64,000 bases of DNA from the NCBI GenBank assembly GCA_007644065.1, contig VJWN01000002.1, positions 2,009,831 to 2,073,830 on the forward strand, in the 5' to 3' direction. The notes beneath the pieces were generated by a model, which saw only the letters and a list, made by a program, of their open reading frames with translations, was not told the origin of the DNA and made no database searches. Shown piece after piece: positions 20,958 to 63,844 of the stretch (the stretch's first letter is position 1; each line of letters starts with the position of its first letter). The translations under genes were made by a program, and so were the position numbers. Origin of the DNA: Margaritispora aquatica. Taxonomy: Eukaryota > Ascomycota > Leotiomycetes > Helotiales > Discinellaceae.

Positions 20958-23900
20958 TCACTTCACATCCCCAAAATTCAATCCCTCATACTTCCCCACC
21001 GTATCCCTCCCGGCCAAGAAGCTCTCCGGTGGTCCCAAATAACTCGGTCTCAATCCCCCAAAATCAAGCATAATCTTCTGAATCACCACGCCTGTCTCCA
21101 CGAGCCAGATCTTCAGCGTATGACTCCCTGCTGTCCCCAGATCATGCTTCGTAGTGGTCGTCTTCCCGCTCGCTGTCAGACCCCACACTGCGTCTGAGAC
21201 GGCGCCGCCCCAGCCAGCCGGCATGTTGGTGCCGGTATAATTTCCCACGAACTGGATGGTCTTGGGTGCCTGGTCATCGATCGCGATGGCGTATTTGAGA
21301 GGCTGGGCGGAGCCTTTGTGGTTCAGTGATGGGGACAGTAGGAGTGTGATGTTCACCACTGTGGAAGCTGTGAAGGTGAAAATGTCGTATTCGAGCACAG
21401 GACCCGTGCCAGCTGGCTGGGTGGGCGCGAGGACAGGGAGCATGGTGACACCTGATTTGGTGCGGCCGTAGCTATCCAGCGTGAGGTAGTGCACGCCGCC
21501 GACGGAGGAGTTGCGCGATGCGTGAGCCGCTTCGATGGCAATGACGCCATCGCTTTCGACGAAGCCAGCAGTATTGGCGGGGATTGAGCGCGAGATTACA
21601 GGCACTTGGATGGTGGGTTTTGGGTAGGGCCCCCAGGAACCGCAGGAGGAGAGGACGCTGATGGTGACGGTTGTGGAGTTTGGCGCGGTGGGGGCTTTGG
21701 TCCAGTCGATAGAAACGAAGACCCGGGTGTCAGTGCCGTTGTGACCGCCTGTATAACCGGTGGTTTGGGAGAGTGCGACGTAGCTAGCTGCCGGAGTGAG
21801 GGTCCATTGGCAGCCTGAAGTACCGCGGGCAAAGACATCGATGTATCGAGTTTTGGGTCCATAAGGGTCCATGGGTGGGAGAACAAGAGTTGCGCCTGAG
21901 TTCGAGTGATAGCTGTCGTCTCCTGAGACTGTGGCATTTGAGGCTTCTACACCAATGCCGATGTTACCTGGCAATGCTGTCTCAAATTCTTGGACGAATG
22001 TGAGCGGTGGAGCCATGTTTCGCATGGGTTGCTGCCAGTATCCCCAGTATCCGAGATGTGTTTCTATTTCGATTAGTTCGTTTCTTTGAACACACTCGTG
22101 GAGACTCACGGTCAAGCATATGATTCCACTTCCCACCAAGCAGATCATGATATCTTTGCGTAAGCACATGATCTTGCTTGAAATCGGCCAAAACATCCAT
22201 GGCAACTGAATTTGCCGAGTTCCTCTTTTGCAGACTGTACAGAGAGTTCTTGGCAGCTCCAATATAGATCTGATTGACCACCTCACCACCAAGCACAGGC
22301 TGGAGAATCATCTCATAGTAAGCAGCTTTATACTCAGAGCCCAAATTATCGTAGATAGCCTGTGCATCAACCGCAAGCTTGGCCCATTGAGCGAGCACAG
22401 CTTCTCCTTCGTTGTAGTTGATGATGCTATACACACTCGGATCAATCAGCTCGTACTTCCTTCGTGCAGCATACATGCCGTAACGATCGAGCACAGAAAC
22501 AATGGCTGCAGCACGAGCTTCAGTAACATCAAATTCTCGAATCGCCCAAAGCTTGAGCCAAGTTGGTGCACTGTTATATCCCCATTTTGGCGTATCGTAG
22601 GCCATGTCCAAAAAGTGATTGATAGGTACCTCGAGTGGCTTCAAATCTCCCACATTCAGGATCCAGATACGGTCAGCCTGTCTGGCTAATGCAAGTTGCA
22701 TCTACAAAATGTCAGTGTGCATATATGTGCTGCGCAGAACCACATTACCTGCTCCACCGTCTTTGAAAGCTGGATAGTATTGATCCACTTGTAGCTTCGT
22801 GGATCTCCCACATAATCGACGTGGTAATAAACGCCTATGAAGTCGTCAGCCAGATCAAGTACAATTTCTCGAGCAACTTACCAGCACCACCAGATCGCCC
22901 CATCTCATTCGCAAGCGGCAATCTCCTGATATTTCCCCAATTGTCATCCGTCCACAATAGGGTCACATCATCCGGAACAGTCAGTCCCAGATTTTCATAA
23001 TAGCCCTGCACTTCCTTATACAAACACCACATTTGCGGAATATCCGTTACATTTGTTCCATTGAACACACTTGACAAAATCTCTCTTTGTGATTTGATAA
23101 CATTCTCCAACACCACAACAGCTTCAGGATCAGAGAGAGTGATGCCTGTATCACCACTTCCACGCATAGCCATGGTGAACAAGCTGCTTGCCGCGTATGG
23201 TTTGGCTCGCTGAGCTCCGTAGGTGAAGAAGGGATTGATGGATGCATTATTGACGTTATAAGACCATGAGCCCTTGCCAAAGGAGCCCCATTCGTTGGTA
23301 GCTCGCATCATTGGTTCTGTCGACGGTTAGCAGATTTCAGTATAAAAATATGCGATTTTGCTACCTGTATGACTAGTCCCCATTACAATGCCAAAAGCAT
23401 CAGCCAGAGGCTGATTAGCAGTATCATCCACGTTGAACATACTTGCCCACATAGCAGGCCACAAATAATTCGCCCTCAACCTCAGCAAAAGCTCAAACAC
23501 ATGCGGATAGAAGAAATGATTGAAACCAGGTCCATATTTGCCAGGTGCGTAATTCATGCTGCTTCTAGTCAGTCTCACCATCACAATCCAAGCCATGAAG
23601 AAAGACATACTTGATCCAATTCGTCAGAGCTGGCTGCTCATCATTGATGAAGATCCCCCGGTATTTCACACTTGGGCTCCCCTGGACTTTCTTCACGCCC
23701 AAAGCCCATACACCGGCCATTCTCTTAATTGGCACATCAGCCCACCACCACCAGGGAGACACACCAATCTGCTCGCTGATGTCGTAGAGACCAAAGATTG
23801 TGCCTCTGAGATCGCTGCCGGCAATGACTAGAGCCTTGTCTACGCCTGGGAGTGGAGAGTTGATAACTTGGGAGATGAAAGACTCCCATTTGCCTGTGAT

Positions 23901-24401
23901 GGGCGAGGCATCGAGCTTCCCAGATGAGATCAGAGCATTGATCACTGAGGACTTGCCAATTGTGCCTGCGATTATTACACATTTGCTCAAAGTGCTGCTC
24001 TGCAGGGTAGCTCCAGTGAATTGTTCTGCTGCTCCAACAGTGTACTGGTTCAACAAACATCAGTTCTTGATTACGCCCAGGACAGCCCAGACTAAGAACC
24101 AACTTACATTCACAAAACTAGTAACTGGCTTGTAGCTGTAACTGGCAGTCGTCTTTCCACCTTGCCAATTGGCCAGAGTTAAATTCTTCCCAACAACCTT
24201 ACCAAAGTCACCAGCAAGATCTTCTGCGGCGCGAAGAACTCCCCACCAGTCATCTGCACTTAACAGAATCTGGTTGTCCTTGCCACCTCCAGCCAATTGA
24301 AGCAATCCGGATGCAGAGGATGTAGTGACAGTGACATTTTGACCTAGGCCTGTAACCAAATTACAGACTCCAAGCAACGTGATGAGGCTGAATACCTTCA
24401 T
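20958..24401 (-). CDS. Secreted GH115 xylan alpha-1,2-glucuronidase
   Basis: Removes 4-O-methyl-glucuronic acid side chains from glucuronoxylan outside the cell. Seven exons, 24401-24108, 24044-23611, 23561-23365, 23316-22882, 22834-22749, 22701-22110 and 22063-20958, join in phase for 1047 aa, typical for GH115. An N-terminal signal peptide (MKVFSLITLLGVCNLVTG) is followed by family blocks: GSDLRGTIFGLYDISEQIGV, GIFINDEQPALTNW, ELLLRLRANYLWPAMW, FGIVMGTSHTEPMMR, LLWTDDNWGNIRRLP and GGAGVYYHVDYVGDPRSYKW. The C-terminal 400 residues are Ser/Thr-rich beta-domains. Many NxT/S sequons fit secretion. The exon 3 acceptor is a tandem AAG/CAG (23558-23563), so two isoforms differing by one residue are possible. 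XlnR- and CreA-like promoter sites fit induction by xylan and glucose repression. Confidence 0.95.
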
Positions 24402-28779: not shown

Positions 28780-30296
28780 TCAACCCCTAAATAGATCAGA
28801 GTCTAGGGTCAAGTCGTATCCATCATCTCTGTCCCAATTATAAGCATACTGCGACAGATCCATTTGCGATCTCTGCCTTTCATCCGATCCACTACTCATG
28901 CGACACCCAACAACATGCATCCTTACCCCATTCCACCAAATCACCTTGCATGCCCAGCAAAACTCTGTCGTACAGTTCCTACACGTGAAGTGTGAACAAC
29001 CACCTTTCCGTTCGATTTTGTTGCCACATCCGTTCTTGGGGCAGCTCTTGGTTGTACGAGCGATTTCCTGCAACGTGCCCACCTGGTTATCTAGTCTCCG
29101 ACGTCGAGCCTCTGCTTCTTGTTTCCGAGCCTGCTCTTTTGCCCTGGTGGACTCAGCAAAGACAGTTTGCGCTGATTTCTTCTTGTTAAGTTCTCTTTGT
29201 TGCTTCTCCTTGTCAATGGTAACGAGGTGTGCGCATGCTCCGGAGGTATCGCCTTTGCACAAATAACAACGTCGATTGGAACAGGAGAGACATATCCATT
29301 CTGGCATACTGTCTGAGATGGGAGGATTAGCTATTTCTTTTTACCTCAGGAATATGGAACTCTTTTACTTGCCTCCCCGAGCGTGGATTTGGCCGTGTCC
29401 GCATTCGCACCACCGAAATTTTGGGTCTTTTGAGAGCGCTTCCACTGCTGATTTCTTGACATATCTAACATACCGATCAGCACAGGTCAAGATACAGTTA
29501 TGGCGCTCGTCATTCATACAATTGGAAAACGCTTCTCGAGATGAGCGGACGAAGCTCCTCTGTTGATAGAATTCCTTTACAATCTGCATCTGGACAGCCA
29601 AGCTCAAGGCGTCCTCGCTGGATCAATTGCTCGAAATTCTGTTTCAGGCATTGGTCGCATACATTACGATCGTGATTGCATTTTGAAGTCGGAGCTTTGA
29701 ATGCTATGTCATGGTCCTGGTCATAGGCTATCTCGCTACAGCATATTTCACATTCGAATACATGATACTTATCTAACAAAGCAAGCACTTTGCTATCCGT
29801 CTATTAGCAGATCTCTGAGCAGTCAGCCTACGGTTACTTACTTCACCATAACACGGGAAGCCGATTCATCTTGCAACACCCTCCTGTCTAACTGAAGCCG
29901 GCGTCTACAACCCTCAATGGCGCATTGATGCTTGCCCCTCAAGACATCCAACAAGTACATTTGATCGCATTTTGCACACACAACGCTAGTTGTGTGGCCT
30001 TTCCTGGCATTATGTGTGCGGGATTCGAGTTCTCCCTTATGTTCAGAGCATGTCAAGAACATCCATAAATGCGAACGTCTTGTAAGTTTCGTTACTATAG
30101 ACGTTTTTTGGCAAACCATGCATTTTTGTGGCCCTGTCGGTATCTTTGCATCTATCAAAGTGGTATAGGTTAGGCAGTGAGCAGGCGTATTGATACATTT
30201 CAATCCTCATCAAAATTGTGAGAAGTACGGGATCTTACAAAAGCACAGATTTAGCTCCCAGCATATCTTCCAGTCAGCAAATTCTTCGGTATCCAT
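28780..30296 (-). CDS. RBR-type (RING1-IBR-RING2) E3 ubiquitin ligase
   Basis: Transfers ubiquitin or a ubiquitin-like protein from an E2 to substrate through a catalytic Cys in RING2. Five exons, 30296-30239, 30151-29842, 29792-29520, 29464-29369 and 29308-28780, join in phase for 421 aa. An N-terminal Cys/His-rich segment (about 30-110) precedes RING1 (about 135-205: FECEICCSEI, CNHDRNVCDQCLKQNF, CPDADCKG). The IBR (about 214-275) has KDPKFRWCECGHGQIH and WICLSCSNRRCYLCKG. A charged linker leads to RING2 (about 335-385: CPKNGCGNKIERKGGCSHF, then CWACK and HVVGC). By comparison with Parkin/HHARI, Cys350 in KGGCSHF is the predicted catalytic residue. Two acceptors (before 29792 and 29308) need the second of two nearby AGs to keep phase. 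The start MDTEEFADWKIC is chosen for phase; an upstream exon is possible. It is divergent from the ubiquitin-like gene at 30630. Confidence 0.9.
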
Positions 30297-30629
30297 CGAT
30301 TCTTTCTTTGGTAGAGGTTCAAAGTGTAAATGCAAGGATTGTGAGATGTTCAACCGGATCTAGAGATGAGACCAATGCACATTTTAATTACCTTTCCAGG
30401 TGGCGCTTTGCAGAGGCTGTGGTTTTCCGATCCAAGAAAACAGCACAAATCAGGTGGTGGCTGGCTGCGTGCTGCATCCATTACCGTGTTGTCTCATACA
30501 TTCAACAGAGCCTTGCGAGGATTGGTACCCAACCCACTCTGTGCTGCAAACCCCGGTGAGGCTATGTTCTTTGATACACTTATATTCTTCGGTATGTGCC
30601 TATTCAACACACATCCCACCAAAACAAAA
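30297..30629. other. Short divergent promoter region between RBR E3 and ubiquitin-like gene
   Basis: The two start codons are 333 bases apart. The plus strand has a Cys-rich open block at 30400-30555 that starts right after a strong pyrimidine tract and CAG and ends at a GTGAGG donor-like site. The frame of the ubiquitin-like gene is also open upstream to about 30345. The minus strand has an ATG-initiated open block near 30480-30390. None can be joined to a neighbour with confidence, so all remain unassigned. Confidence 0.4.
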
Positions 30630-31477
30630 ATGACTGACTGGAGAAGTAAACAAGCAGGTGAAGCACCGGATCATTCCCTATGGGTCGAGGAGATAAACAC
30701 CAACGATGGTACCAGACATCAGCTCAACGGATTCGGTACCAGTAACACTGTCAAGAGTCTCCAGATCGCGATAGCGACCCTACTCAAAATGCCACAAGGG
30801 TGGAAAGACCTGTCAATTGCGTTTGCTGGTAGAGTGCTCGCTGATGGTAGGTAACTAATATTCTGAAAGACTTGGCCCAGCGAGTTATTAAATGCAACAG
30901 GATCTTCGACTCTTGCGTCGCATGGAGTGCAGCAGGTAACTCTTCCATGTGAAGCTGATCCAATACATTTGAAAGTTGACTTAACAGGGCGACACTGTAT
31001 ACTTCACACGTTCTGTCGCAATTCCAGACGATCCTCCATCCTACAACACTAAGGAGATCGTTCTCAGCACTGTCATGTTCAAGGATCTTGATGGCCGAAC
31101 ACTTACTACAAACAATATCCCGATTTCTTGGACGATCCGTCAGTTGAAAGACAAACTTGGGAGGGAGAAGGCTATGGAGCTTGATGACTATCGATTTCTG
31201 TGGGGCGCGAAACAGCTTGAAGATGGTATGTAAAATCCTCAATCCCATCTCAAAAGCCTTTTAATCATCATCATTTTACTCGGGGTACTCGGAGTACTAA
31301 CTGCACATTCAGAAAAAACACTAGAACTTTATGGGATCGGCAATGTGAGTTTTTCACGAGAATCCCCATCTCATTGCTCATGTACATGGACTAATACGTG
31401 CCCTTGGTACACAGGAGTGCACAATTATGATGGTCATGCGTTTGCCGGGTGGGATCATGACGCCACCCTTTGTGTGA
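30630..31477 (+). CDS. Tandem two-domain ubiquitin-like protein with C-terminal Gly-Gly
   Basis: Five exons, 30630-30846, 30901-30935, 30988-31225, 31313-31344 and 31415-31477, join in phase for 194 aa. Residues about 14-92 form a first ubiquitin-like fold (LSIAFAGRVLADGSSTLASH, then GVQQGDTVYF). Residues about 100-187 form a second (SWTIRQLKDKL, FLWGAKQLEDEKTLELYGIG, ECTIMMVMRLPGG). The chain ends RLPGG followed by seven residues (IMTPPFV), so it resembles a ubiquitin-like precursor needing proteolytic exposure of Gly-Gly (186-187), and its two-domain plan resembles vertebrate ISG15. It differs strongly from ubiquitin in sequence. Introns are 51-87 nt. Its start lies 333 bases from the divergent RBR ligase, suggesting co-expression. 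Whether it is conjugated, or is only a non-covalent ubiquitin mimic, is open. The start ATG 30630 is preferred because the first fold begins soon after it. Confidence 0.85.
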
Positions 31478-37156: not shown

Positions 37157-37482
37157 TTCAAGGGTCTCGATGGAAGGTTGTTCTTTCCTTCTCTTCACCT
37201 ATCTCAGTATCTTATCTTGTTCAGTTCAGTAATCAAATTTCTCAAACTATACAGTACAGTAGATCATCTAACGAAGGCTGCTATTTTGCTACTTGCGCTG
37301 GCCTGCTTCCTCTTTCTTCTTCTCTACTTTGAACCCAATGGTTAGCAAAGCTGTCTTCGAAAAACTCGCGGCATTCGTCGCTGATCGCATCAGAGCCGAT
37401 CCTGAGCAGATCGTGCTGGAGAAGCTCGAAATCACGCGCAAGAAGTATCCTGTTAACAAAGCTCGAGGAAGTAGCAAAAAGT

Positions 37483-39246
37483 ATGATGAAATTGGCACGC
37501 CTTGAATTTTCCCAAACAGCCGTTACAACGTGGAAGACTCATGACGAGAAACATGGCAATTGGCCTGTCGTGTATATATTGGACGACGGCAATGGCGCCG
37601 CGCACGCCAATTCGAACACGCCAAGGGACATTTACGTTGGAGAGACGATCAATGCCGCTAATCGAATGCATCAGCATCTCAATACGCCTGCGAAACAGCA
37701 CCTCAAAAACATTCGTGTCATCATCGATGAGAGATTCAACAAGTCTGTCTGCCTTGACTTGGAGTCTTACCTTATCAAAATGTTGGCCGGCGACGGTGCC
37801 AATCGGGTGCTCAACCGGAATAACGGCATTACAGAAACGCAGTACTATCAATGTGAGATGTACCGCGAGGGTTTTCACAATATCTTCGAACAACTAAAAG
37901 CGGAGGGCGTCTTTACACGAAGTATTCCCGAAATCGAAAATAGCGACCTTTTCAAGTTGTCGCCATTCAAAGCACTGACGGAAGATCAAGCCAACTCGGT
38001 GGAGGAAATCGTCAGTGGGTTGCTTATTGATATCGAGAGAGGCAGCAAAAGCACGATCGTCATCCAAGGCGATCCAGGCACCGGCAAGACGGTCATGGCC
38101 ATATACATAATCAAGCTACTTATTGACATCAAGACATTTACTTCACTAGAAGATCTGGATAGCGACTTACAGTTCTCTAATTTCTTTACCGAGAGGAACC
38201 AACGGCTACTTCATGATCTCCGCATTGGCCTAGTGGTGCCCCAGCAATCATTACGAAAGTCTATCAAGATGGTCTTCAAGAAAACGCCTGGGCTTGAACC
38301 CTCAATGGTCATGGACCCTTTCAAAGTTGGAGAAGCAGAGGGAATTTTCGACCTCCTGTTGGTTGATGAAACCCATCGGCTTAATCAACGTGCCAATCAA
38401 GCAGGGGCAATCCTTAACACCAAGTTCGCAACCATCACGAGCGAGCTCTTTGGCAGCGACGATAAAAGCAAGACCCAACTTGATTGGATACGGACGAAGA
38501 GTCGACATCGAATATTCCTCTTAGATGCGGCGCAGAGTGTTCGACCAGCTGATCTGCCCACAGAGCTGTTGTCAGGTCTAGTAGCCGACACTCGTGCTTC
38601 GGGACGGCATTTTCAACTTCGGACTCAGATGCGTGTCAAAGCAGGATCCGATTTTGTGTCCTACGTTCGTTGCATTCTTGATCCTCATCCTCTTTCGCAT
38701 CCAAGAGTGAGACAGGATTTTGGAGAATATGATTTTCGCTTGTTTGACAGCGTTGCACACATGCGAGACCAAATTTTCCAACGTAATGCTGAAGTAGGCC
38801 TTTCACGGATGGTCGCTGGTTTTGCATGGCCGTGGAAGAGCAAAAAGGATAGGAACGAGATCGACATAGAAATTGGCCAGACGCAGCTCCGCTGGAACAG
38901 CGTCATCGCTGACTGGATTGCTTCTAGCAAAGCACTCGAGGAAGTAGGATCAATCCATACGGTTCAGGGTTACGATCTGAACTATATTGGTGTTATTATT
39001 GGTCTTGATCTGCGATTCGACCCTGAACGGAGGGGTCTTTTAATTGATCGCAAATCGTACTTTGATAAGAAGGGCAAGGAGAACAACCCCGTTCTCGGCA
39101 GGAAGTATTCGGATGATGACTTGCTGCGATTCATCACACAGATCTATGCGGTGCTCATGACACGTGGTATCCGTGGAATGTATGTTTATGCATGCGATCC
39201 TGGGTTGAGGGAGTATCTCAAAGTTTTCATCCCTACACGGTCCTAA
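37483..39246 (+). CDS. GIY-YIG nuclease fused to DUF2075 (Schlafen-like) helicase
   Basis: Intronless frame of 587 aa with bacterial domain architecture. The GIY-YIG part spans about 25-135: WPVVYIL, then DIYVGETINAANRMHQHL with the conserved Arg, and LDLESYLIK carrying the metal-binding Glu. The DUF2075 P-loop helicase part spans about 160-587: Walker A QGDPGTGKT (about 196-204), Walker B LLLVDETHRL (about 290-299), FLLDAAQSVRP, LRTQMR and GSIHTVQGYDLNYIGVIIG. All key residues are intact, so the gene looks functional rather than decayed. Bacterial relatives are thought to act in defence or nucleic-acid processing; the fungal role is unknown. A 48-codon open frame (37338 onward) precedes it in another frame. 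A 50-nt GT-AG intron from about 37470 would fuse that segment on, but it would remove the family-like first residues. Confidence 0.88.
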   Translation: MMKLARLEFSQTAVTTWKTHDEKHGNWPVVYILDDGNGAAHANSNTPRDIYVGETINAANRMHQHLNTPAKQHLKNIRVIIDERFNKSVCLDLESYLIKMLAGDGANRVLNRNNGITETQYYQCEMYREGFHNIFEQLKAEGVFTRSIPEIENSDLFKLSPFKALTEDQANSVEEIVSGLLIDIERGSKSTIVIQGDPGTGKTVMAIYIIKLLIDIKTFTSLEDLDSDLQFSNFFTERNQRLLHDLRIGLVVPQQSLRKSIKMVFKKTPGLEPSMVMDPFKVGEAEGIFDLLLVDETHRLNQRANQAGAILNTKFATITSELFGSDDKSKTQLDWIRTKSRHRIFLLDAAQSVRPADLPTELLSGLVADTRASGRHFQLRTQMRVKAGSDFVSYVRCILDPHPLSHPRVRQDFGEYDFRLFDSVAHMRDQIFQRNAEVGLSRMVAGFAWPWKSKKDRNEIDIEIGQTQLRWNSVIADWIASSKALEEVGSIHTVQGYDLNYIGVIIGLDLRFDPERRGLLIDRKSYFDKKGKENNPVLGRKYSDDDLLRFITQIYAVLMTRGIRGMYVYACDPGLREYLKVFIPTRS

Positions 39247-43899: not shown

Positions 43900-45782
43900 T
43901 CACAAAAGCTCCGTCTCACCAATCTTGGGGCTTACGAACTCTGCACCACAGATCGCCTGAAGCTGAGGTGCGCTGAAATCCTTGCTCGTCCAATTCCTCG
44001 CCATATTTACCACGGGGACAGGTCGCTCACCTTTACCTTTCTCTAATAATATAAACCGCAGTCCCACTTCGGTCACTGTGACGGCTATACTGATGACGAT
44101 GAGAATGATGACAATCCAGGTGATGGTGCTCATTTTGGTGTCTGCTATACTGTCGCTCAAGATCTCGGCAAGTTCTAGGAAGACTCTGCAGCGCTCGTTG
44201 AGGACTTTGATGCGGGGTGTGATTTCTAGATACTCTCTGATGGCGAAGTAGAGGGGATGGAGTGTGGGTTCTGAGTCCCAGAAGAAATTGGGAACGTCAA
44301 GGATGTTAGATGCTAGGTGCTGTCAGATTTTGATCATGGCTGAAGAGCGAAATATAGACTTACAGAGATTGACATCGACGCGACTCTTGAAAAGCCGTCC
44401 GAGAATCTTGACAATTTCTTTCCTTGACATTCCTAGCTGACCTGTGAGAGCGAGATGCTTTGGCACATGCTGAGCATCCAACATGGTTTGAGACATCTTC
44501 TCTTCGAAAAAGCTCAATTTCGTGCTTTGAGAAATAGCATGGCTCATAGCAAGCTTGATCATATGATCGCCGCTTCGAAGTGTAATCATATCATTAAACA
44601 CTCTAGGTCTTTCAACCAAGGGGCTGTATTCGAAATGGAGCTCTTCCGTCTCGAAGTCATCTTCCTCGACCGGCCTCACCATCAATGAAACCCCAGTCTC
44701 ATGCTCCGAGAAACTCAAATCGGCCAGAATATCCTTCTCTTGGCGTTCGGAAAAATTCCAGAATACCACAACACCATAAGAGAAGACAAACATCTCTGCG
44801 AAAGTGGTAGCGTCTGGCGCAATTCGGTTCGGACTGTCTCCGCGACGACCTTGTGCAAGCACTCGTGTCTCTTCTCGGGCCCGACGACTATCATCCAATC
44901 TTCTCTCTCTGTTCTCCTCACTCTCATCATTTCGAGGCATATCCTCTCCATATCGAACACCATAAGTATCTGTGTCTTCGAAGTACCCCTCATGATAATT
45001 CCGTTGCTCATTCCTCTCAATCTCTTCGTCCAGGACTGCCTTCCCACCAGGGCTCTTCAACACAGGACTACTCCTGACCCTAAAGCCTTCCAATCCTGGT
45101 TGTAATGGTAGATGATATACCGTGTATAAACAATCATCGTAAAGTTTCGTCTTGGCACCATGTGTATCCTTCACAAAAGCCGCCGTCGCCTTAAGCCGAT
45201 ATCCTTGAGCCGTGCAATACGCCGTAACTCTCGCCAGCTTCTCTGCTCTCTGTGCCTTGGGCAATCGCTCTGCATAACTCTTCCCACGAATGCCACCCCT
45301 CTTCTTCAGAACATCCATCTCCTCATTCCTCGGCGGGCCATCCGGGGCATCGAGTCCGAAATTTGCCAACCCATCCTCATCCTCGTCTTCCTTCTCATTG
45401 ACGGTCTCAGGAATCAGAACCAGCTTCTCGCTGACCTTCGTGCTTCGTCCCGGAGCAGCTTGCTGCGCTATGCGCGTTCCTGGTTTTTGTGGTGCTGGAC
45501 GCTGCGAGGCTGGAGGAGGTCTTCGTCCTGGTGGACCCCGCGCTTGACCAGAGGGGATCTCGGAGGCATATTGGAGGACGTTATCGACTGAGATGAAGCG
45601 TGTGGGCATGCGATTGCGAATTGCACCTTGATTGCCGGGTAACTGACGTTGTGAGTTACCTCTGGTCACGGAAGGGCGTTCTCGAGAGTCAGTGACCTGC
45701 TTTGGTCAGTTCATGCATCGCAGATCGTGCAGATGTCTCTTACCAAGACTGAAGGACCTCTTTTTCCAGTGGTGGTTGCCAT
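43900..45782 (-). CDS. RMD1/DUF155 family membrane protein
   Basis: Relative of yeast Rmd1/Rmd8 and human RMND1 (mitochondrial); yeast members were found in meiosis screens, and the S. pombe relative Sif2 as a Sad1 interactor. Three exons, 45782-45744, 45696-44364 and 44312-43900, join in phase for 594 aa. A disordered Pro/Arg/Gln-rich N-terminal third is followed by the DUF155 domain. This begins at about 150 with KLARVTAYCTAQGYRL and includes FAEMFVFSYGVVVFWNFSERQE, the acidic DDFETEELHFEYSP and ITLRSGDHMIKLAMSHAISQ. It continues across the last intron with SNILDVPNFFWDSEPTLHPLY and REYLEITPRIKVLNERCRVF. A C-terminal transmembrane helix (TWIVIILIVISIAVTV) and a short tail end it. The start gives an MATTTGKRGPSVL first exon, chosen by phase. 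Confidence 0.93.
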
Positions 45783-51357: not shown

Positions 51358-54300
51358 CTACACACTCTCGAGGTTGTTCAGAGGAACATAGCCTTCCTCT
51401 TCCGTTCTCCTCCTACCGGTGACATTCCTCGCAAGATCAGTGATCTTGCCCACCAAACCACCCAAGCCCCATCCCTTACCCTTCCTCCTAATCTGCCCTC
51501 TCTCCTCCAACACGGCGTCCTCCATCCATCGTGGCCTCTTCCAGAACTTCAACAGCAAACTGCTGGCAACGACGCTTACACTACTGAGAGCCATGGCCGC
51601 GCCTGCAGCCATAGGATGCAAGTGCCATCCAAAGGGAAGGAAAAGACCCATCGCAAAAGGAAGGCCAATAACGTTGTAACCACACGCCCATGCGAGATTG
51701 AGCTTTATCCGGTTGAAGATGGACCTTGCGAGTTGGATGGACGCAGGGATGTCCATCAGATTGTCCGGACGCATAAGAACGACATCAGCGGCCTCCATGG
51801 CCACATCCGTACCTGAAGCCAATGCGATCCCGACATCTGCAGTTGCCAGCGCAGGGGAGTCGTTGATCCCATCACCAACCATTGCTACACATTCTCCTTG
51901 TGCTTGAAGTTGTCGAATGATTTCTTGCTTTTGGTCAGGCGTTACACCTGCATGGACATTTTCGACAGGAATGCCGACGATACGTGCAACGGCTATGGCA
52001 GTTGATCGCTGATCACCCGTCACTATCGAAGTCTTAACACCCATGCGCTTGAGAGCAGAAATGCATGCACGGGCGCTTTCCTTCACAGTGTCCGAAAGGC
52101 AGAGATGACCAGTGAACGCTCCGTCGATAGCAATGAAAATATTTGTAGTGCCCGCTGAGGATACTTTTGAGGAACCTGCAGCTTTGACATTTTCTTCCTC
52201 CGAAAGCTCAATAGATGCCTGGGGTACAGTAATGTTATTGTCCTTCAGGAAACGGACACTTCCAATGAGAATTCGATACCGGACACGTTCTGCAGAAGTT
52301 GCAGGCTCGACAAGAGCACTGATACCCTTGCCAACAATGGCTTCGAAATCGCCGATACTGCCATCGATAGTGCCTTCAATGCCAAGTCCAAGTTCTGATT
52401 TAGCGGATGCGAGAATTGCTTTGCCAATAGGATGTTCGCTGCCCATTTCGGCAAGTCCTAGAATTGTCCACCAGAGTTTCCTTCTCCACTCGCTGTTCTC
52501 CCAAGTAGGCACAAGTTTGGTACTGGCAACGCTCATTTTACCCATCGTCAATGTGCCAGTCTTGTCTAGCACAACTTGTGTGATTTTCGTAGCAGTCTCA
52601 AGAGCAGCGCCACCCTTGACAAGAATACCATTGCTAGCACCAACACCAGTGCCAACCATAACGGCAGTAGGCGTTGCAAGACCGAGGGCGCAGGGGCAAG
52701 CAAACACGATAACTGAGATGCAAAGCTCGACACAGACCATGAACCTTCCACCACTCTCTTCCTCGACGAAAATCTTGGGTGGGTGCGAGAGCACATGGCT
52801 GAGAATCATCCAAGTGGAAAAGGTGAGGAAACCAAGCAACAAGATGATAGGCACGAAGTAGCCAGCGATCTGATCGGCGAGTCGTTGAATGGGAGCCCTG
52901 GTCGTTTGCGCGTCTTGAACAAGCTTCACAATTTGACTCAGTTGAGTATCTCTACCTGCTCTGGTAACACGGAAATCAACTCGTCCAGCTCCATTGACTG
53001 TCCCACCAATAAGCAGACCTCCTTTACGCTTTTGAACCGGCATTGCTTCTCCAGTAACCATACTTTCATCAACATATGTTTCACCTCGAGTGACTGTGCC
53101 GTCTGCTGGAATCTTGTCACCTGGTCTAAGGATGACAATATCGCCCACTTGAATCAGCTCGGTAGGGATAATCTTCTCTTCGGCTGCATTTCCTTCTTGG
53201 TTGGCTTCTGATCTTGCCTCATTGCCAGATCCAAGAGAGAGCTCCCATCCTTCAGCCGCCTTCTCAGCAGCAATAGGATCCGCATAGATAGTGGCCATAG
53301 AAGGAGCCAAAGACATGAGTTTTGAAAGAGCTTTTGAGGTCTGTCCCTTGGCATTGTTCTCTAAAAAGCGTCCCAGAGTGATGAATGTGATGAGCATACT
53401 GCTGGTGTCGAAGATGGTGTTCGGGCGACTGTGAGGCGGTGCGACAATAGATACAGCCATTGCTGCAACGCTGAAAAAGAACGCAGCAGACGTTCCAAGG
53501 ACGACTAGGACATCCATCGTAGGCGATCCATGCTTCATGGATTTGTATGCGGAGATATAGAAACGTTTGCCAACTCCAAATTGGACGGGTATCGTAAGAA
53601 CTAAACAAATAATATCTCGCAGGTAAAGACCGGGAACAAGAAATACTATTCTGCCAATATCCATAAATGGGAGGAACATCGGGATGACCATGCTGAGCAA
53701 GAAGACAGGAAAGGCGAACGAGACTGAGATTTTGAAAGCTCGCCACCACTCAGTAATCTCCTTGGTCTTGGATAGAGACTGAAGCTGAGCGTTATTATCT
53801 TCATTGTCAGCTACAAGGGCGTTAAACCCCAGTGACTCGACAAGCTCAACTAGAGCACGAAGGCCAGCTATGCTCGGTTGATGTGAAACTGACAATCTTG
53901 AGGTTGCAAGACTGACAGTGGCCGAGTTGACTCCCGGCATAGCTTTGAGCCTCTCCTCCAACGCAGTCGCAACGGGTGCATCATTGACTCCAAATAGCTT
54001 GAATTGGGTAGTTGATGTACCAGAAGTCTGACCGAATACTCCCAGAGTAGTAGAAAGTACTTTGCAGTCAAATCCCCTATCATCAATGATCTCGGCAATC
54101 TTGTCTGCTGAGAGTTTCGCAGGGTCATGAACAATAACCGCTCGCTCTGCTAGTAGACTGATGTTGAATTGTATAAGACCGGCCAAGTCTTTGAAGCCTC
54201 CTTCAATGGCCGAAGTGCAAGCACCACAAGTCATACCCTCGATCGCAACAGTTGTCGTTGCGATCTTCTCCTTCTTATTGAGACTACCTCGTCGCATCCT

Positions 54301-54930
54301 CTCCTTTGGCGCGGGTGTTGCAATATTGCTTTCCACGACTGATGCTCCAAACCCTCGGTCCTCGATTATTTCGGCAATCTGATCCGCACTGATTATCGAG
54401 GCATCGTGCTCTACCACGGCTCGCTCCGATAGTAGTGATATACTGAAAGTTTTGACACCAGGCACATCTTTGAATCCTCCTTCGACCGCAGATGTGCACG
54501 CCCCGCATGTCATACCTTCTACAGCCAAAGTTGTCGTTGTGAACGCCTCGGCCACATCCTTTTCCTCCTCTCCGTCCTCTTCCTCATTATAAAGATAGCC
54601 TTTCCTGTTGAACATGGGCGAAGGAAGATCCGTGGCTAGCACCTCCGCATCAAATCCTCGGTCGTCGATGATTTCCTGTATCCTCTCTGCCGATATCTTC
54701 TGAGGATCGTGCATGACTACAGCCCTCTCCATTACCAGACTGACCGACACATTTCCAATGCCTTCCACTCCTTTGAACCCAGACTCGACCGCAGACGTAC
54801 ACGCTCCGCATGTCATCCCACCGACTTTTAACGTTGTACAAGCCATATGCGCCGGTGTCGCAGGAGTTGCTAGAGAAGGCCGTAATGTTGATGCGCCGGC
54901 CTTCACCTTGAGATTCGGATGAGGAGCCAT
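51358..54930 (-). CDS. CCC2: P1B-type copper-transporting ATPase (CCC2 type)
   Basis: Pumps cytosolic Cu(I) into the Golgi lumen for loading multicopper oxidases. Intronless frame of 1190 aa. Three N-terminal heavy-metal-binding domains carry GMTCGAC near residues 38-44, 134-140 and 227-233. A fourth ferredoxin-like repeat (about 300-370) lacks the CxxC. Membrane helices begin at about 395 (VSFAFPVFLLSMVIPMF). The actuator motif MVTGEAMPV lies near 625, and the ion-binding helix with FACPCALGLATP near 742-752. DKTGT with the phosphorylated Asp sits near 785, SEHPIGKAI near 833 and the hinge MVGDGINDSPALATADVG near 1020. The last helices and a short basic tail complete the chain. Yeast CCC2 has two metal domains, so four repeats is the filamentous-fungus form. 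It is head to head with the COP9 subunit gene. Confidence 0.96.
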   Translation of the reverse strand: MAPHPNLKVKAGASTLRPSLATPATPAHMACTTLKVGGMTCGACTSAVESGFKGVEGIGNVSVSLVMERAVVMHDPQKISAERIQEIIDDRGFDAEVLATDLPSPMFNRKGYLYNEEEDGEEEKDVAEAFTTTTLAVEGMTCGACTSAVEGGFKDVPGVKTFSISLLSERAVVEHDASIISADQIAEIIEDRGFGASVVESNIATPAPKERMRRGSLNKKEKIATTTVAIEGMTCGACTSAIEGGFKDLAGLIQFNISLLAERAVIVHDPAKLSADKIAEIIDDRGFDCKVLSTTLGVFGQTSGTSTTQFKLFGVNDAPVATALEERLKAMPGVNSATVSLATSRLSVSHQPSIAGLRALVELVESLGFNALVADNEDNNAQLQSLSKTKEITEWWRAFKISVSFAFPVFLLSMVIPMFLPFMDIGRIVFLVPGLYLRDIICLVLTIPVQFGVGKRFYISAYKSMKHGSPTMDVLVVLGTSAAFFFSVAAMAVSIVAPPHSRPNTIFDTSSMLITFITLGRFLENNAKGQTSKALSKLMSLAPSMATIYADPIAAEKAAEGWELSLGSGNEARSEANQEGNAAEEKIIPTELIQVGDIVILRPGDKIPADGTVTRGETYVDESMVTGEAMPVQKRKGGLLIGGTVNGAGRVDFRVTRAGRDTQLSQIVKLVQDAQTTRAPIQRLADQIAGYFVPIILLLGFLTFSTWMILSHVLSHPPKIFVEEESGGRFMVCVELCISVIVFACPCALGLATPTAVMVGTGVGASNGILVKGGAALETATKITQVVLDKTGTLTMGKMSVASTKLVPTWENSEWRRKLWWTILGLAEMGSEHPIGKAILASAKSELGLGIEGTIDGSIGDFEAIVGKGISALVEPATSAERVRYRILIGSVRFLKDNNITVPQASIELSEEENVKAAGSSKVSSAGTTNIFIAIDGAFTGHLCLSDTVKESARACISALKRMGVKTSIVTGDQRSTAIAVARIVGIPVENVHAGVTPDQKQEIIRQLQAQGECVAMVGDGINDSPALATADVGIALASGTDVAMEAADVVLMRPDNLMDIPASIQLARSIFNRIKLNLAWACGYNVIGLPFAMGLFLPFGWHLHPMAAGAAMALSSVSVVASSLLLKFWKRPRWMEDAVLEERGQIRRKGKGWGLGGLVGKITDLARNVTGRRRTEEEGYVPLNNLESV

Positions 54931-56413
54931 CTTCTATTTCAATCACAGCGGCGTTTGGCAGCGCTGCTAGGGAAGAAAGAATACTTCTTCAGTGAACTTG
55001 GGCCGGATCTCTAATCGAGCAGTTGATGTCTTACTTGGCGAATAACCCGCGCTTCCACGATAATGAATGATTCACGGTTCCGATTAACGACTGCCTATAC
55101 TGACAAATGAGCGGTAAGGCACTGCAAGAAAACAGAAGCCAGCTTCTGCGAGAAGAGTCGTAAAGAAGGAGGGAATGGAGGCGTCGAATGTCTGATTAGA
55201 GAGGTCTTTTGGGTTTGAAACCACAGCACAACCTTTCTTTTGCTTCAGCTGGGCGGCTCTCAGGCAAGTCCGCGCACCCGACTTGGGACTTGGGTGACAA
55301 ACCGACCAGGAATCTGATTCGGCAATCCTGGACGTCGATCTGTTTTAATGTGCGAGATGAATAAGAACAAGAAGATGGTTTGTCTCTAATGGAGGGGGTA
55401 TACGACCAAAAGACGTAGATGTTTATAATATGTAGAGTGAGTGGCTATTCATCTCTTCTTCTATCCAGATATCTATTGCTAAATCCCCGAACTACCGATG
55501 AGAATCAGGCTCAAGATGGGGAGGGTCGTCAATGAAGGTGTGGCTTTGATGCAGGGCATACGGAGAAGATGCGCACGACAAGCTCCTTCAAGTTCGTGCT
55601 CCGAAAGTCTTGTCACAACACCTCTGGAATTGGCCCTTTGTCCCCCTGATCAAGTTTGACAACTGCATCTACTTTGGGACAGAATATCACCTTCACTTCG
55701 CTCATACTGTACCACGCTTCATGGTACCGTAGCCAGAGCGATGCGTTTGAACTCGTATTCTAGATACACACAAGCCTATGTACCTTTGAAATCTGAACAG
55801 CACTCTGGATTTCAGATATTGTTTTTAGGCCATCTCCAGAAATCTTTCCAGGTCTCTTTTGAGAAAGTGCAACGCGTTCGCTGCATAAACCCTGTGAATC
55901 AATACTTGAGAGGGTCCTCAAGGCCCAAGTTGACGACAGTTTGACCAGAATTGCAAATAATCTCCGAAGTGATCAGATTTTCCACTGATGATGCTCATGC
56001 TCATGCTCATGCTCATGATGGGATTGTAAACGGATGAAAGAAGAGCGGCTTCTTTGTCTCTCTCTTACTCGTAAAGACGAGGATGAGACTCAAGCTTTGC
56101 CGATGTTTGAAGCTTGGCGACGATGAGTCTGTGTCCAGCGTTCCATTCCATTCGGAGGGAAGTTATTGCCACTGCCGTGAACAGTTGAAACAAGGCCAAA
56201 CAGGAGTAAGCTACTGTACGAGAAGATTGAAGTTGGTCTGGGTGATTTGGTATCAAAGATGTTTGATCGTAACCTAAGCGACAGCGGGAAGGGGACGCTA
56301 ACAACTTCATCTCTCAGCCTCGTCTCTACACTGTAACCAAACAGGCAGCCTTCTATAGCTACAACCACCAGTTTCAACATACAAGTGAGAAATACCACCG
56401 AAACAACGTCATC
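54931..56413. other. Divergent promoter region CCC2-type ATPase / CSN7
   Basis: About 1.5 kb without a supported gene. It contains a perfect GCTCAT tandem repeat (about 55993-56016). Open frames (55741-55944 plus and 56065-56422 minus) lack features. Confidence 0.5.
55993..56016. repeat. GCTCAT tandem repeat
   Basis: Four perfect copies of the 6-base unit GCTCAT lie about 400 bases upstream of the CSN7 start. It is a simple repeat with no coding context. Confidence 0.7.
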
Positions 56414-63146: not shown

Positions 63147-63844
63147 TCACTCATCATCAATGTCCTCATGACGGCCCAGGACCTTCTTCTGGAATTCAGC
63201 TGGATCCTTGTCCCACAACTCGGCAGCTTCACCGTTCAATGGAGAAGCACTAGCCACTGATTAGTATTTACAGCATCTGAAAAAGGAAATAAACATACTT
63301 GTTTGGCTCTCCAAGCAGACTCTGAAGACTTAGAAGAACGGTCTGGATGTTGTATGCAGCGGTCCACTTGTCTTTCAAGATGTCCAGGCAGATTCTTCCC
63401 GAGAAGTCGACATTGGGGTGGTAGATAGGAGTCTTGAAAAGAACGGTTGGTGGGGCATATGGATAATTGGATGGGAACTCAAAAGAGAGCTTGAAAGATA
63501 GGTCGGCATATGGGGTTTCATCTGGTCCTTCAATGGTTGCAGTCCAGACAAGAAGATTGCCATCGGACGGGAAAGCCGAGATACCAGGAGCACCACCAGT
63601 CATCAATTGCATGAGTTCGGTTTGCAGGCTATGATATTGTCAGCAATGTGTCCTAGATTATCCTACGGAGGGGCAACTGTGATAGCAGTTTGCTGCAGGC
63701 AAGAATGACAATAGCAGAGGAAACGTACCGCTTAGTTGTGCTCTGCGCATCAGGGGCACGTCTAGGAGCGGCAAGCTTTGCTGCTTGAGCAGTAGGCACA
63801 GCACCTGGAGCAGAATTCTGGGTGTCCTCCATATCGTAGTCCAT
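63147..63844 (-). CDS. E2 ubiquitin-conjugating enzyme, UBE2C/UbcP4 type
   Basis: Likely APC/C-linked E2 needed for mitotic cyclin destruction. Three exons, 63844-63729, 63628-63299 and 63249-63147, join in phase for 182 aa. A 40-residue disordered N-terminus ([16 protein letters not shown]) precedes the UBC core: [57 protein letters not shown], then HPN and the catalytic Cys in [29 protein letters not shown] and [11 protein letters not shown]. The tail ends HEDIDDE. The [10 protein letters not shown] and [11 protein letters not shown] blocks point to the UBE2C group rather than Ubc4/5. The last acceptor needs the second of two nearby AGs; the first would give an immediate stop. Confidence 0.95.

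What the first reader, a model, noticed from the sequence alone, without database searches (positions are those of the whole stretch)
28780..31477. Divergent pair of an RBR E3 ligase and an ISG15-like tandem ubiquitin-like protein
Seen: an RBR gene with RING1, IBR and a RING2 carrying the predicted catalytic Cys350 faces a five-exon gene coding for two ubiquitin-like folds ending RLPGG plus seven residues; the start codons are 333 bases apart. Known: ISG15 and FAT10 are tandem ubiquitin-like modifiers, and RBR ligases use a thioester intermediate. Inference: a fungus-specific conjugation pair co-expressed from one promoter region.
Basis: partly seen in the sequence, partly recalled or inferred. 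Interest (0 to 1): 0.88.

Follow-up and report, generated by a model that had tools for sequence, protein, structure and literature searches.

The report
Fungal tandem-ubiquitin gene beside RBR ligase
In an unnamed fungus, a gene for a small protein made of two ubiquitin-like parts sits back to back with a gene for an RBR-type ubiquitin ligase; both genes look real, but whether the two proteins work together, as a fungal counterpart of the human ISG15 system would, is not yet shown.

Summary
The sequence observation holds. On the minus strand, five exons (30296..28780) give a 421-aa RBR ligase with RING1, IBR and a RING2 with HHARI-type catalytic Cys350; Cadophora and Acephala relatives (44-48% identity) confirm its start. 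On the plus strand, 30630..31477 encodes 194 aa. UBL2 is clearly ubiquitin-like (28 of 76 residues identical to this fungus's own ubiquitin) and ends RLPGG plus seven residues. UBL1 is weak (Pfam E 1.8e-4, below cut-off). No GG separates them: a fused tandem, not polyubiquitin. The start codons lie 333 bases apart.

The pairing is not shown. Two protein searches found no relative of the tandem protein, with limited power, so linkage elsewhere could not be tested; the RBR subfamily occurs in species where none was found. The genome shows one ubiquitin-type E1, so any conjugation would probably use UBA1. Adjacency is weak evidence: 0.034 RBR-UBL pairs are expected by chance within 1.5 kb and 0.068 within 3 kb, judged after the fact.

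Best reading (0.35): an orphan, independently derived ISG15-like modifier, charged by UBA1 and transferred by the adjacent RBR; nearly tied with unrelated neighbours (0.33). May work like ISG15; not a member of that family.

The parts
28780..30296 (-). RBR-type E3 ligase gene, 421 aa, five exons (30296-30239, 30151-29842, 29792-29520, 29464-29369, 29308-28780): N-terminal Cys-rich region, RING1 (about residues 137-194), IBR (about 230-273), linker, RING2 with catalytic-type Cys350 and His352, conserved C-terminal YA..WD.D.GYD..LD motif
   Evidence: Gene model; Pfam IBR 45.4 bits, IBR_1 35.1 bits; relatives and alignment; PDB profile match to RNF31/HOIP RING1-IBR (profile 163-273) and ARIH1 RING2; model of a homologue matches HOIP/ARIH2/HHARI
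30630..31477 (+). Tandem ubiquitin-like protein gene, five-exon model, 194 aa, ends RLPGG + IMTPPFV
   Evidence: Model; exon scoring; PF00240; last exon aligns with ubiquitin residues 64/65-76
30564..30846 (+). Alternative 5' end of the same gene: exon 30564-30591, intron 30592-30657, exon from 30658
   Evidence: In frame with a branch-like site; not distinguishable without RNA
30297..30629 (.). 333-base region between the two start codons (267 bases with the alternative start); candidate bidirectional promoter, untested
31066..31453 (+). UBL2 (spans two introns), keeps ubiquitin-equivalent L8, R42, K48, V70, R72, L73, G75, G76; I44 is Leu, R74 is Pro
   Evidence: 28 of 76 identical to the genome's own ubiquitin, 0 of 1000 shuffles as good

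Best explanation
The plus-strand gene encodes an independently derived, ISG15-like modifier. A ubiquitin-processing protease removes the last seven residues to expose ...RLPGG. The fungus's only detected ubiquitin-type E1, UBA1, activates it through the retained Arg72-equivalent, and a shared ubiquitin E2 carries it. The neighbouring RBR takes it onto Cys350 of RING2 and passes it to targets. The 333-base divergent promoter region would keep the two in step. Shown: the gene structures as open, spliceable models; the ubiquitin-like sequence of UBL2 (weaker for UBL1); the conjugation-type C-terminus with tail; the RBR architecture; one ubiquitin-type E1 in the genome search. Inferred: processing, activation, RBR as its ligase, co-expression.
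For: UBL2 keeps R42, R72 and GG and, conservatively, the hydrophobic patch, and ends GG + tail (the roles of these residues are recalled). No GG lies between the domains, so the tandem stays fused (sequence). ISG15 precursor likewise carries an eight-residue tail, and its two domains are only 29% and 31% identical to ubiquitin (PMC9722776 passages). An RBR ligase (HHARI) transfers ISG15 through a RING2 thioester (PMC8228270 passages). The RBR has complete RING1 ligands; Cys350 and His352 are invariant in 8 of 8 sequences. Head-to-head arrangement; this is the only RBR-UBL pair closer than 36 kb among 20 RBR and 24 UBL places. The RBR is strongly diverged in this lineage: end branch 2.2 against 0.02-0.28 in the four Helotiales relatives; window-unique changes exceed the other's in 9 of 9 relative-rate comparisons, 7 of 9 with p<0.05, the comparisons not being independent. 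This fits co-change with an orphan partner.
Against: No relative of the tandem protein was found (66 candidates at E<=0.001, 18 at E<=10), although relatives of the RBR are listed for seven named species or strains. So the RBR does not obviously need it. No dedicated E1 was found. Arg74 is replaced by Pro, beside the scissile GG, which could hinder processing or deconjugation (inference). The chance expectation for such a pair, 0.034 within 1.5 kb and 0.068 within 3 kb (the two domain matches are 1.6 kb apart by the same measure), was worked out after the fact and is not small. UBL1 is below Pfam's cut-off alone. No expression, interaction or complex prediction. The RBR's divergence may be genome-wide (no other gene was compared), and the tree tool warns that the place of so long a branch is unsure.
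Confidence: 0.35

Rival explanations
1. Unrelated neighbours: the RBR is an ordinary ubiquitin ligase of an ascomycete subfamily, and the tandem UBL is a fast-evolving ubiquitin derivative with its own role. Their closeness is chance in a compact genome.
For: RBR subfamily members exist in Cadophora, Acephala and Sporothrix, with no tandem-UBL relative found. Chance expectation 0.034 pairs within 1.5 kb, 0.068 within 3 kb and 0.227 within 10 kb. The RBR profile and the model of a homologue match ubiquitin ligases HOIP, ARIH1, ARIH2.
Against: The pair is close and divergent, and no other RBR-UBL pair lies within 36 kb. Both members are unusually diverged.
Confidence: 0.33
2. The tandem UBL is not a modifier but a non-covalent regulator of the RBR. 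It would act in trans, as the Ubl of parkin or allosteric ubiquitin and ubiquitin-like binders act on other RBRs; the C-terminal tail is never removed.
For: RBR ligases are known to be controlled by ubiquitin-like domains and by bound ubiquitin or NEDD8 (recalled; parkin structures with its Ubl and with phospho-NEDD8 are among the weaker fold matches). Pro at position 74 and the tail could block conjugation (inference).
Against: A regulator has no need for the RL.GG end and the retained Arg72. No complex was predicted or measured.
Confidence: 0.2
3. The plus-strand gene model is wrong in part or the gene is not expressed (decayed ubiquitin copy); UBL1 or the tail is an artefact of exon choice.
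For: No transcript evidence. UBL1 alone is below Pfam's cut-off. Exons 30901-30935 and 31415-31477 score worse in the coding frame than in another frame. The single-sequence structure model is useless (mean pLDDT 39).
Against: Five or six exons join without a stop across GT..AG introns. The whole-gene codon score 0.19 lies within that of the genes used for training (0.13-0.34, scored on themselves; 3.7% of random frames reach it). The last exon aligns with the C-terminal end of ubiquitin.
Confidence: 0.12

Closest known systems
ISG15 (vertebrate tandem ubiquitin-like modifier)
   Same: Two ubiquitin-like domains in one chain; C-terminal GG followed by a short tail; low identity to ubiquitin; low conservation across species; an RBR ligase (HHARI) can be its E3 (passages).
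   Different: Ends MRLPGG, not LRLRGG; no UBA7-like E1 found in this genome; a fungus, whereas ISG15 is reported only from vertebrates (PMC9722776); no sign of common descent beyond ubiquitin.
BilA of bacterial Bil operons
   Same: Tandem ubiquitin-like protein needing tail removal, encoded beside conjugation enzymes (PMC11354881 passages).
   Different: Bil operons encode E1, E2 and a protease; here only an E3 is adjacent. No sequence link tested.
FAT10
   Same: Tandem ubiquitin-like modifier (recalled).
   Different: FAT10 is made in mature form (PMC11354881 passage); its E1, UBA6, has no counterpart found here.
RBR ligases HHARI/ARIH1, ARIH2, HOIP/RNF31
   Same: RING1-IBR-RING2 with catalytic Cys and His.
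   Different: A distinct ascomycete subfamily: its N-terminal region matched no Pfam family at E<0.04, and it has a conserved C-terminal YA..WD.D.GYD..LD motif.

Membership tests
RBR E3 ligase | RING1 zinc ligands in C3HC4-like spacing | tested here: met
   C137, C140, C161, H163, C168, C171, C189, C194; seven of these invariant in 8 of 8, position 140 is His in the other seven. No RING Pfam model passed for RING1
RBR E3 ligase | IBR between the RINGs | tested here: met
   Two PF01485 stretches in the protein, the better one in RING2; the genome search places a weaker one over window 29245-29466, read across an intron; profile positions 163-273 match RNF31 RING1-IBR. P0004 lacks this part in its deposited model
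RBR E3 ligase | RING2 with catalytic Cys (and His two residues on) | tested here: met
   C350 aligns with the GGC of ARIH1; C350 and H352 invariant in 8 of 8
RBR E3 ligase | Thioester transfer activity | not testable with these tools
   Needs biochemistry
ISG15 | Two fused ubiquitin-like domains | tested here: met
   UBL2 firm; UBL1 weak (21.6 bits, below the curated 25.4; 17 of 72 identical to ubiquitin, 0 of 1000 shuffles as good)
ISG15 | C-terminal LRLRGG exposed by removal of about eight residues | tested here: not met
   MRLPGG plus seven residues: tail yes, motif differs at two places (sequence; for the motif)
ISG15 | Own E1 (UBA7) present | tested here: not met
   One E1_UFD match in the genome, beside the UBA1 domains on C23; the search is intron-blind
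ISG15 | Orthology to vertebrate ISG15 | tested here: inconclusive
   Solved-structure search ranks ubiquitin chains first; ISG15 not among the 60 shown of 367
Polyubiquitin | Near-identical repeats joined at cleavable GG | tested here: not met
   UBL1 and UBL2 give no BLASTP alignment, and 17 of 1000 shuffles equal their global score; no GG between domains. The genome's true polyubiquitin is at C49:618621-619560
Conserved RBR-UBL gene pair | Linkage in other species | tested here: inconclusive
   No relative of the UBL found; no fungal genomes could be searched for context

The most novel reading that the evidence does not exclude
A fungal lineage has independently evolved a tandem ubiquitin-like modifier of the ISG15 kind that borrows the ubiquitin E1 but has its own RBR ligase, encoded head to head and evolving fast with it: a minimal 'modifier plus E3' module without E1 or E2.
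Probability: 0.3. Interest if true: 0.85.

Novelty: new variant of a known kind. Interest (0 to 1): 0.52.

Why it matters
ISG15 is described as vertebrate-only (PMC9722776), with a bacterial analogue in Bil operons (PMC11354881). A further, independent case in fungi would show that 'fuse two ubiquitin folds and recruit an RBR ligase' is a recurrent solution. It would also give a small system in which an RBR's choice between ubiquitin and another modifier could be tested.

Tried and rejected
Polyubiquitin or recent ubiquitin copy: rejected. Paralogue of the tandem protein in the same genome: none at E<=10; the other six matches are exons of true ubiquitin genes at 37-38% identity. Second RBR of the same subfamily in the genome: none seen; other loci (C7, C5, C8, C34) match only parts from residue 108 on. 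UBL fused to the longer Sporothrix RBRs: rejected; their extra N-terminal part (about 200 residues) looks low-complexity by eye and gave no ubiquitin match in the one scanned, P0005. Dedicated E1: none found. The 13 ThiF matches fall in nine places: UBA1, a tRNA t6A dehydratase, UBA3, ATG7, UBA4, AOS1, UBA2, a bacterial-type ThiF at C9, and a weak match at C23:942325 that reads by eye like the NEDD8 E1 subunit ULA1. Viral source: none of six peptide patterns matched viral contigs. RBR relatives in prokaryote contigs: 15 pattern matches, none confirmed. Structure of the tandem protein: single-sequence model mean pLDDT 39, and Foldseek gave no PDB match at E<=0.001; ubiquitin and ISG15 chains appear only at E 0.44 and weaker among unrelated proteins, which I do not count as evidence. 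Effect of Pro at position 74 on proteases: one literature search, no paper. Species identity: not established; the nearest named relatives of the RBR are Helotiales. Literature: in eight searches I saw only the listed titles and abstract starts, and some lists were cut (20 of 908, 12 of 14, 10 of 490); none listed reports a fungal tandem ubiquitin-like modifier or such a gene pair. The library is open-licence papers only.

Full report
WHAT IS THERE. The window lies in contig C12 of a 42.4-Mb genome held as the window's own assembly. I rebuilt both genes from splice sites and open frames. The minus-strand gene has five exons and encodes 421 aa. Its closest relatives found are hypothetical proteins of Cadophora and Acephala (Helotiales) at 44-48% identity, then Sporothrix proteins at 36%. 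They support the exon structure, and the three that include the N-terminus support the start codon. Residue 350 is the Cys of RKGGC in RING2, aligned with the GGC of ARIH1. A profile of the eight proteins matches RNF31/HOIP over RING1-IBR, and ARIH1, Cullin-9, ARIH2 and parkin over RING2. A predicted structure of the Cadophora relative P0001 is of modest quality (mean pLDDT 52). Its best PDB matches are HOIP, ARIH2 and other RBRs, at E 5e-7 and weaker, with low TM-scores, so it agrees mainly at the level of single domains.

The plus-strand gene encodes 194 aa in either of two models that differ at the 5' end. Pfam's ubiquitin model matches it at 8.8e-18. Taken alone, UBL2 is clear (46.3 bits) and UBL1 is weak (21.6 bits, below the curated 25.4). 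Aligned with the fungus's own ubiquitin, UBL2 is identical at 28 of 76 positions and UBL1 at 17 of 72; none of 1000 shuffles reached either score. UBL1 and UBL2 are hardly alike: no BLASTP alignment, and 17 of 1000 shuffles equal their score. UBL2 keeps the ubiquitin-equivalent L8, R42, K48, V70, R72, L73, G75 and G76; I44 is Leu and R74 is Pro. UBL1 lacks the C-terminal GG, so the two domains cannot be released from each other as in polyubiquitin. Seven residues (IMTPPFV) follow the final GG. Codon use of the whole gene is in the range of the window genes used for training (0.19 against 0.13-0.34, those scored on themselves; 3.7% of random frames score as high), though two of its short exons score worse than in another frame. 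That of the RBR is low (0.03), above its other frames as a whole but not in exon 29464-29369.

IS THE PAIRING MORE THAN CHANCE? In the whole genome I counted 26 IBR matches in 20 places (E<=0.001) and 29 ubiquitin-family matches in 24 places (E<=1; 19 of the 29 over the curated cut-off, the window's own UBL2 exon not among those 19). This is the only RBR-UBL pair closer than 36 kb; its two domain matches are 1.6 kb apart. With these numbers 0.034 pairs are expected within 1.5 kb and 0.068 within 3 kb by chance. That is a hint, but it was computed after the pair had been noticed, and a reader would have remarked on many other E3 types. Both counts come from an intron-blind search and are lower bounds.

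DISTRIBUTION. The tandem protein found no relative among about 5.8 billion proteins, either whole (66 candidates, none at E<=0.001) or by its UBL2 half (18 candidates, none at E<=10). The search needs shared five-residue words. In a simple simulation (independent positions) a relative of 46% identity shares at least two of the words used in 55% of cases, and one of 35% identity in 11%; how many shared words the tool demands is not stated. A small gene with four or five introns may also be missing from annotations. So orphan status is likely for close relatives and open for distant ones.

The RBR is strongly diverged here. In a tree of eight proteins its end branch is 2.2 changes per column against 0.02-0.28 in the four Helotiales relatives (the Sporothrix proteins have 0.15-0.95); its placement beside Acephala (93/97) is not firm, and the tool warns about such long branches. 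With Sporothrix as outgroup (my assumption), the window protein has more unique changes in 9 of 9 comparisons, p<0.05 in 7 of 9. I used three of the four Helotiales relatives (P0004 was not used), and the nine comparisons share sequences. Whether this is special to the gene or general to the genome is unknown.

THE REST OF A CASCADE. A modifier needs an E1. The genome search gave one E1_UFD domain, beside the UBA1 domains. The 13 ThiF-domain matches fall in nine places, and none that I could assign is a UBA6- or UBA7-like enzyme; one of the nine was assigned by eye only. If the tandem protein is conjugated, UBA1 is the likely activator; the retained Arg72 is what UBA1 is known to need (recalled). 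There are 31 E2-domain matches; none can be assigned to it.

HOW IT PROBABLY WORKS. My leading reading is tail removal, activation by UBA1, a shared E2, then transfer through Cys350 of the neighbouring RBR. Everything after the gene structures is inference. The precedent is good: HHARI, an RBR, uses a RING2 thioester to transfer ISG15, and ISG15 has an eight-residue tail and two domains of 29% and 31% identity to ubiquitin (passages of PMC8228270 and PMC9722776; ARIH1 mono-ISGylation of cGAS seen only as a search listing with abstract start, PMC9551088). Close rivals are unrelated neighbours and a non-covalent regulator.

MEMBERSHIP. The minus-strand protein is an RBR ligase by sequence, of an ascomycete subfamily with its own N-terminal region and C-terminal motif. 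The plus-strand protein is not ISG15: the terminal motif differs, the ISG15 E1 was not found, and ISG15 is reported only from vertebrates. It resembles ISG15 in build and may work like it.

VERDICT. The sequence finding stands in its stated details; the 5' end and the first ubiquitin fold of the tandem protein are less firm than the rest. Interest 0.52.

Noticed in passing
window 63271-63639 (-): Open frame of a ubiquitin-conjugating enzyme (PF00179, E 4.4e-41; it looks UBE2C-like by eye, recalled), about 32 kb from the pair and the best E2 match of the genome. No sign that it belongs with the pair.
   Followed up: partly
window 37333-39243 (+): Open frame with a Schlafen group 3 helicase domain (E 9.8e-62) and a weak GIY-YIG match (below cut-off) in front of it.
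   Followed up: no
window 20961-24059 (-): Exons of a GH115-type glycoside hydrolase.
   Followed up: no
window 51361-54933 (-): 1191-aa open frame of a heavy-metal P-type ATPase with four HMA stretches.
   Followed up: no
window 43903-45705 (-): DUF155 (RMND1/Sif2-Sif3/Mrx10) protein in two open frames.
   Followed up: no
L071 743-1888 (-): 381-aa ThiF-domain frame on contig C9; a 162-residue part of it has as closest solved relatives TcdA/MoeB-type proteins rather than eukaryotic ubiquitin E1s; perhaps acquired from bacteria.
   Followed up: no
alignment A1, window RBR residues 400-415: The RBR subfamily shares a strongly conserved C-terminal motif (YA..WD.D.GYD..LD) of unknown role after RING2, and a Cys-rich N-terminal region without any clear Pfam match.
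   Followed up: partly
P0004 (Cadophora sp. DSE1049): The deposited protein lacks about nine residues after RING1 and nearly the whole IBR in the alignment; probably a gene-model error.
   Followed up: no
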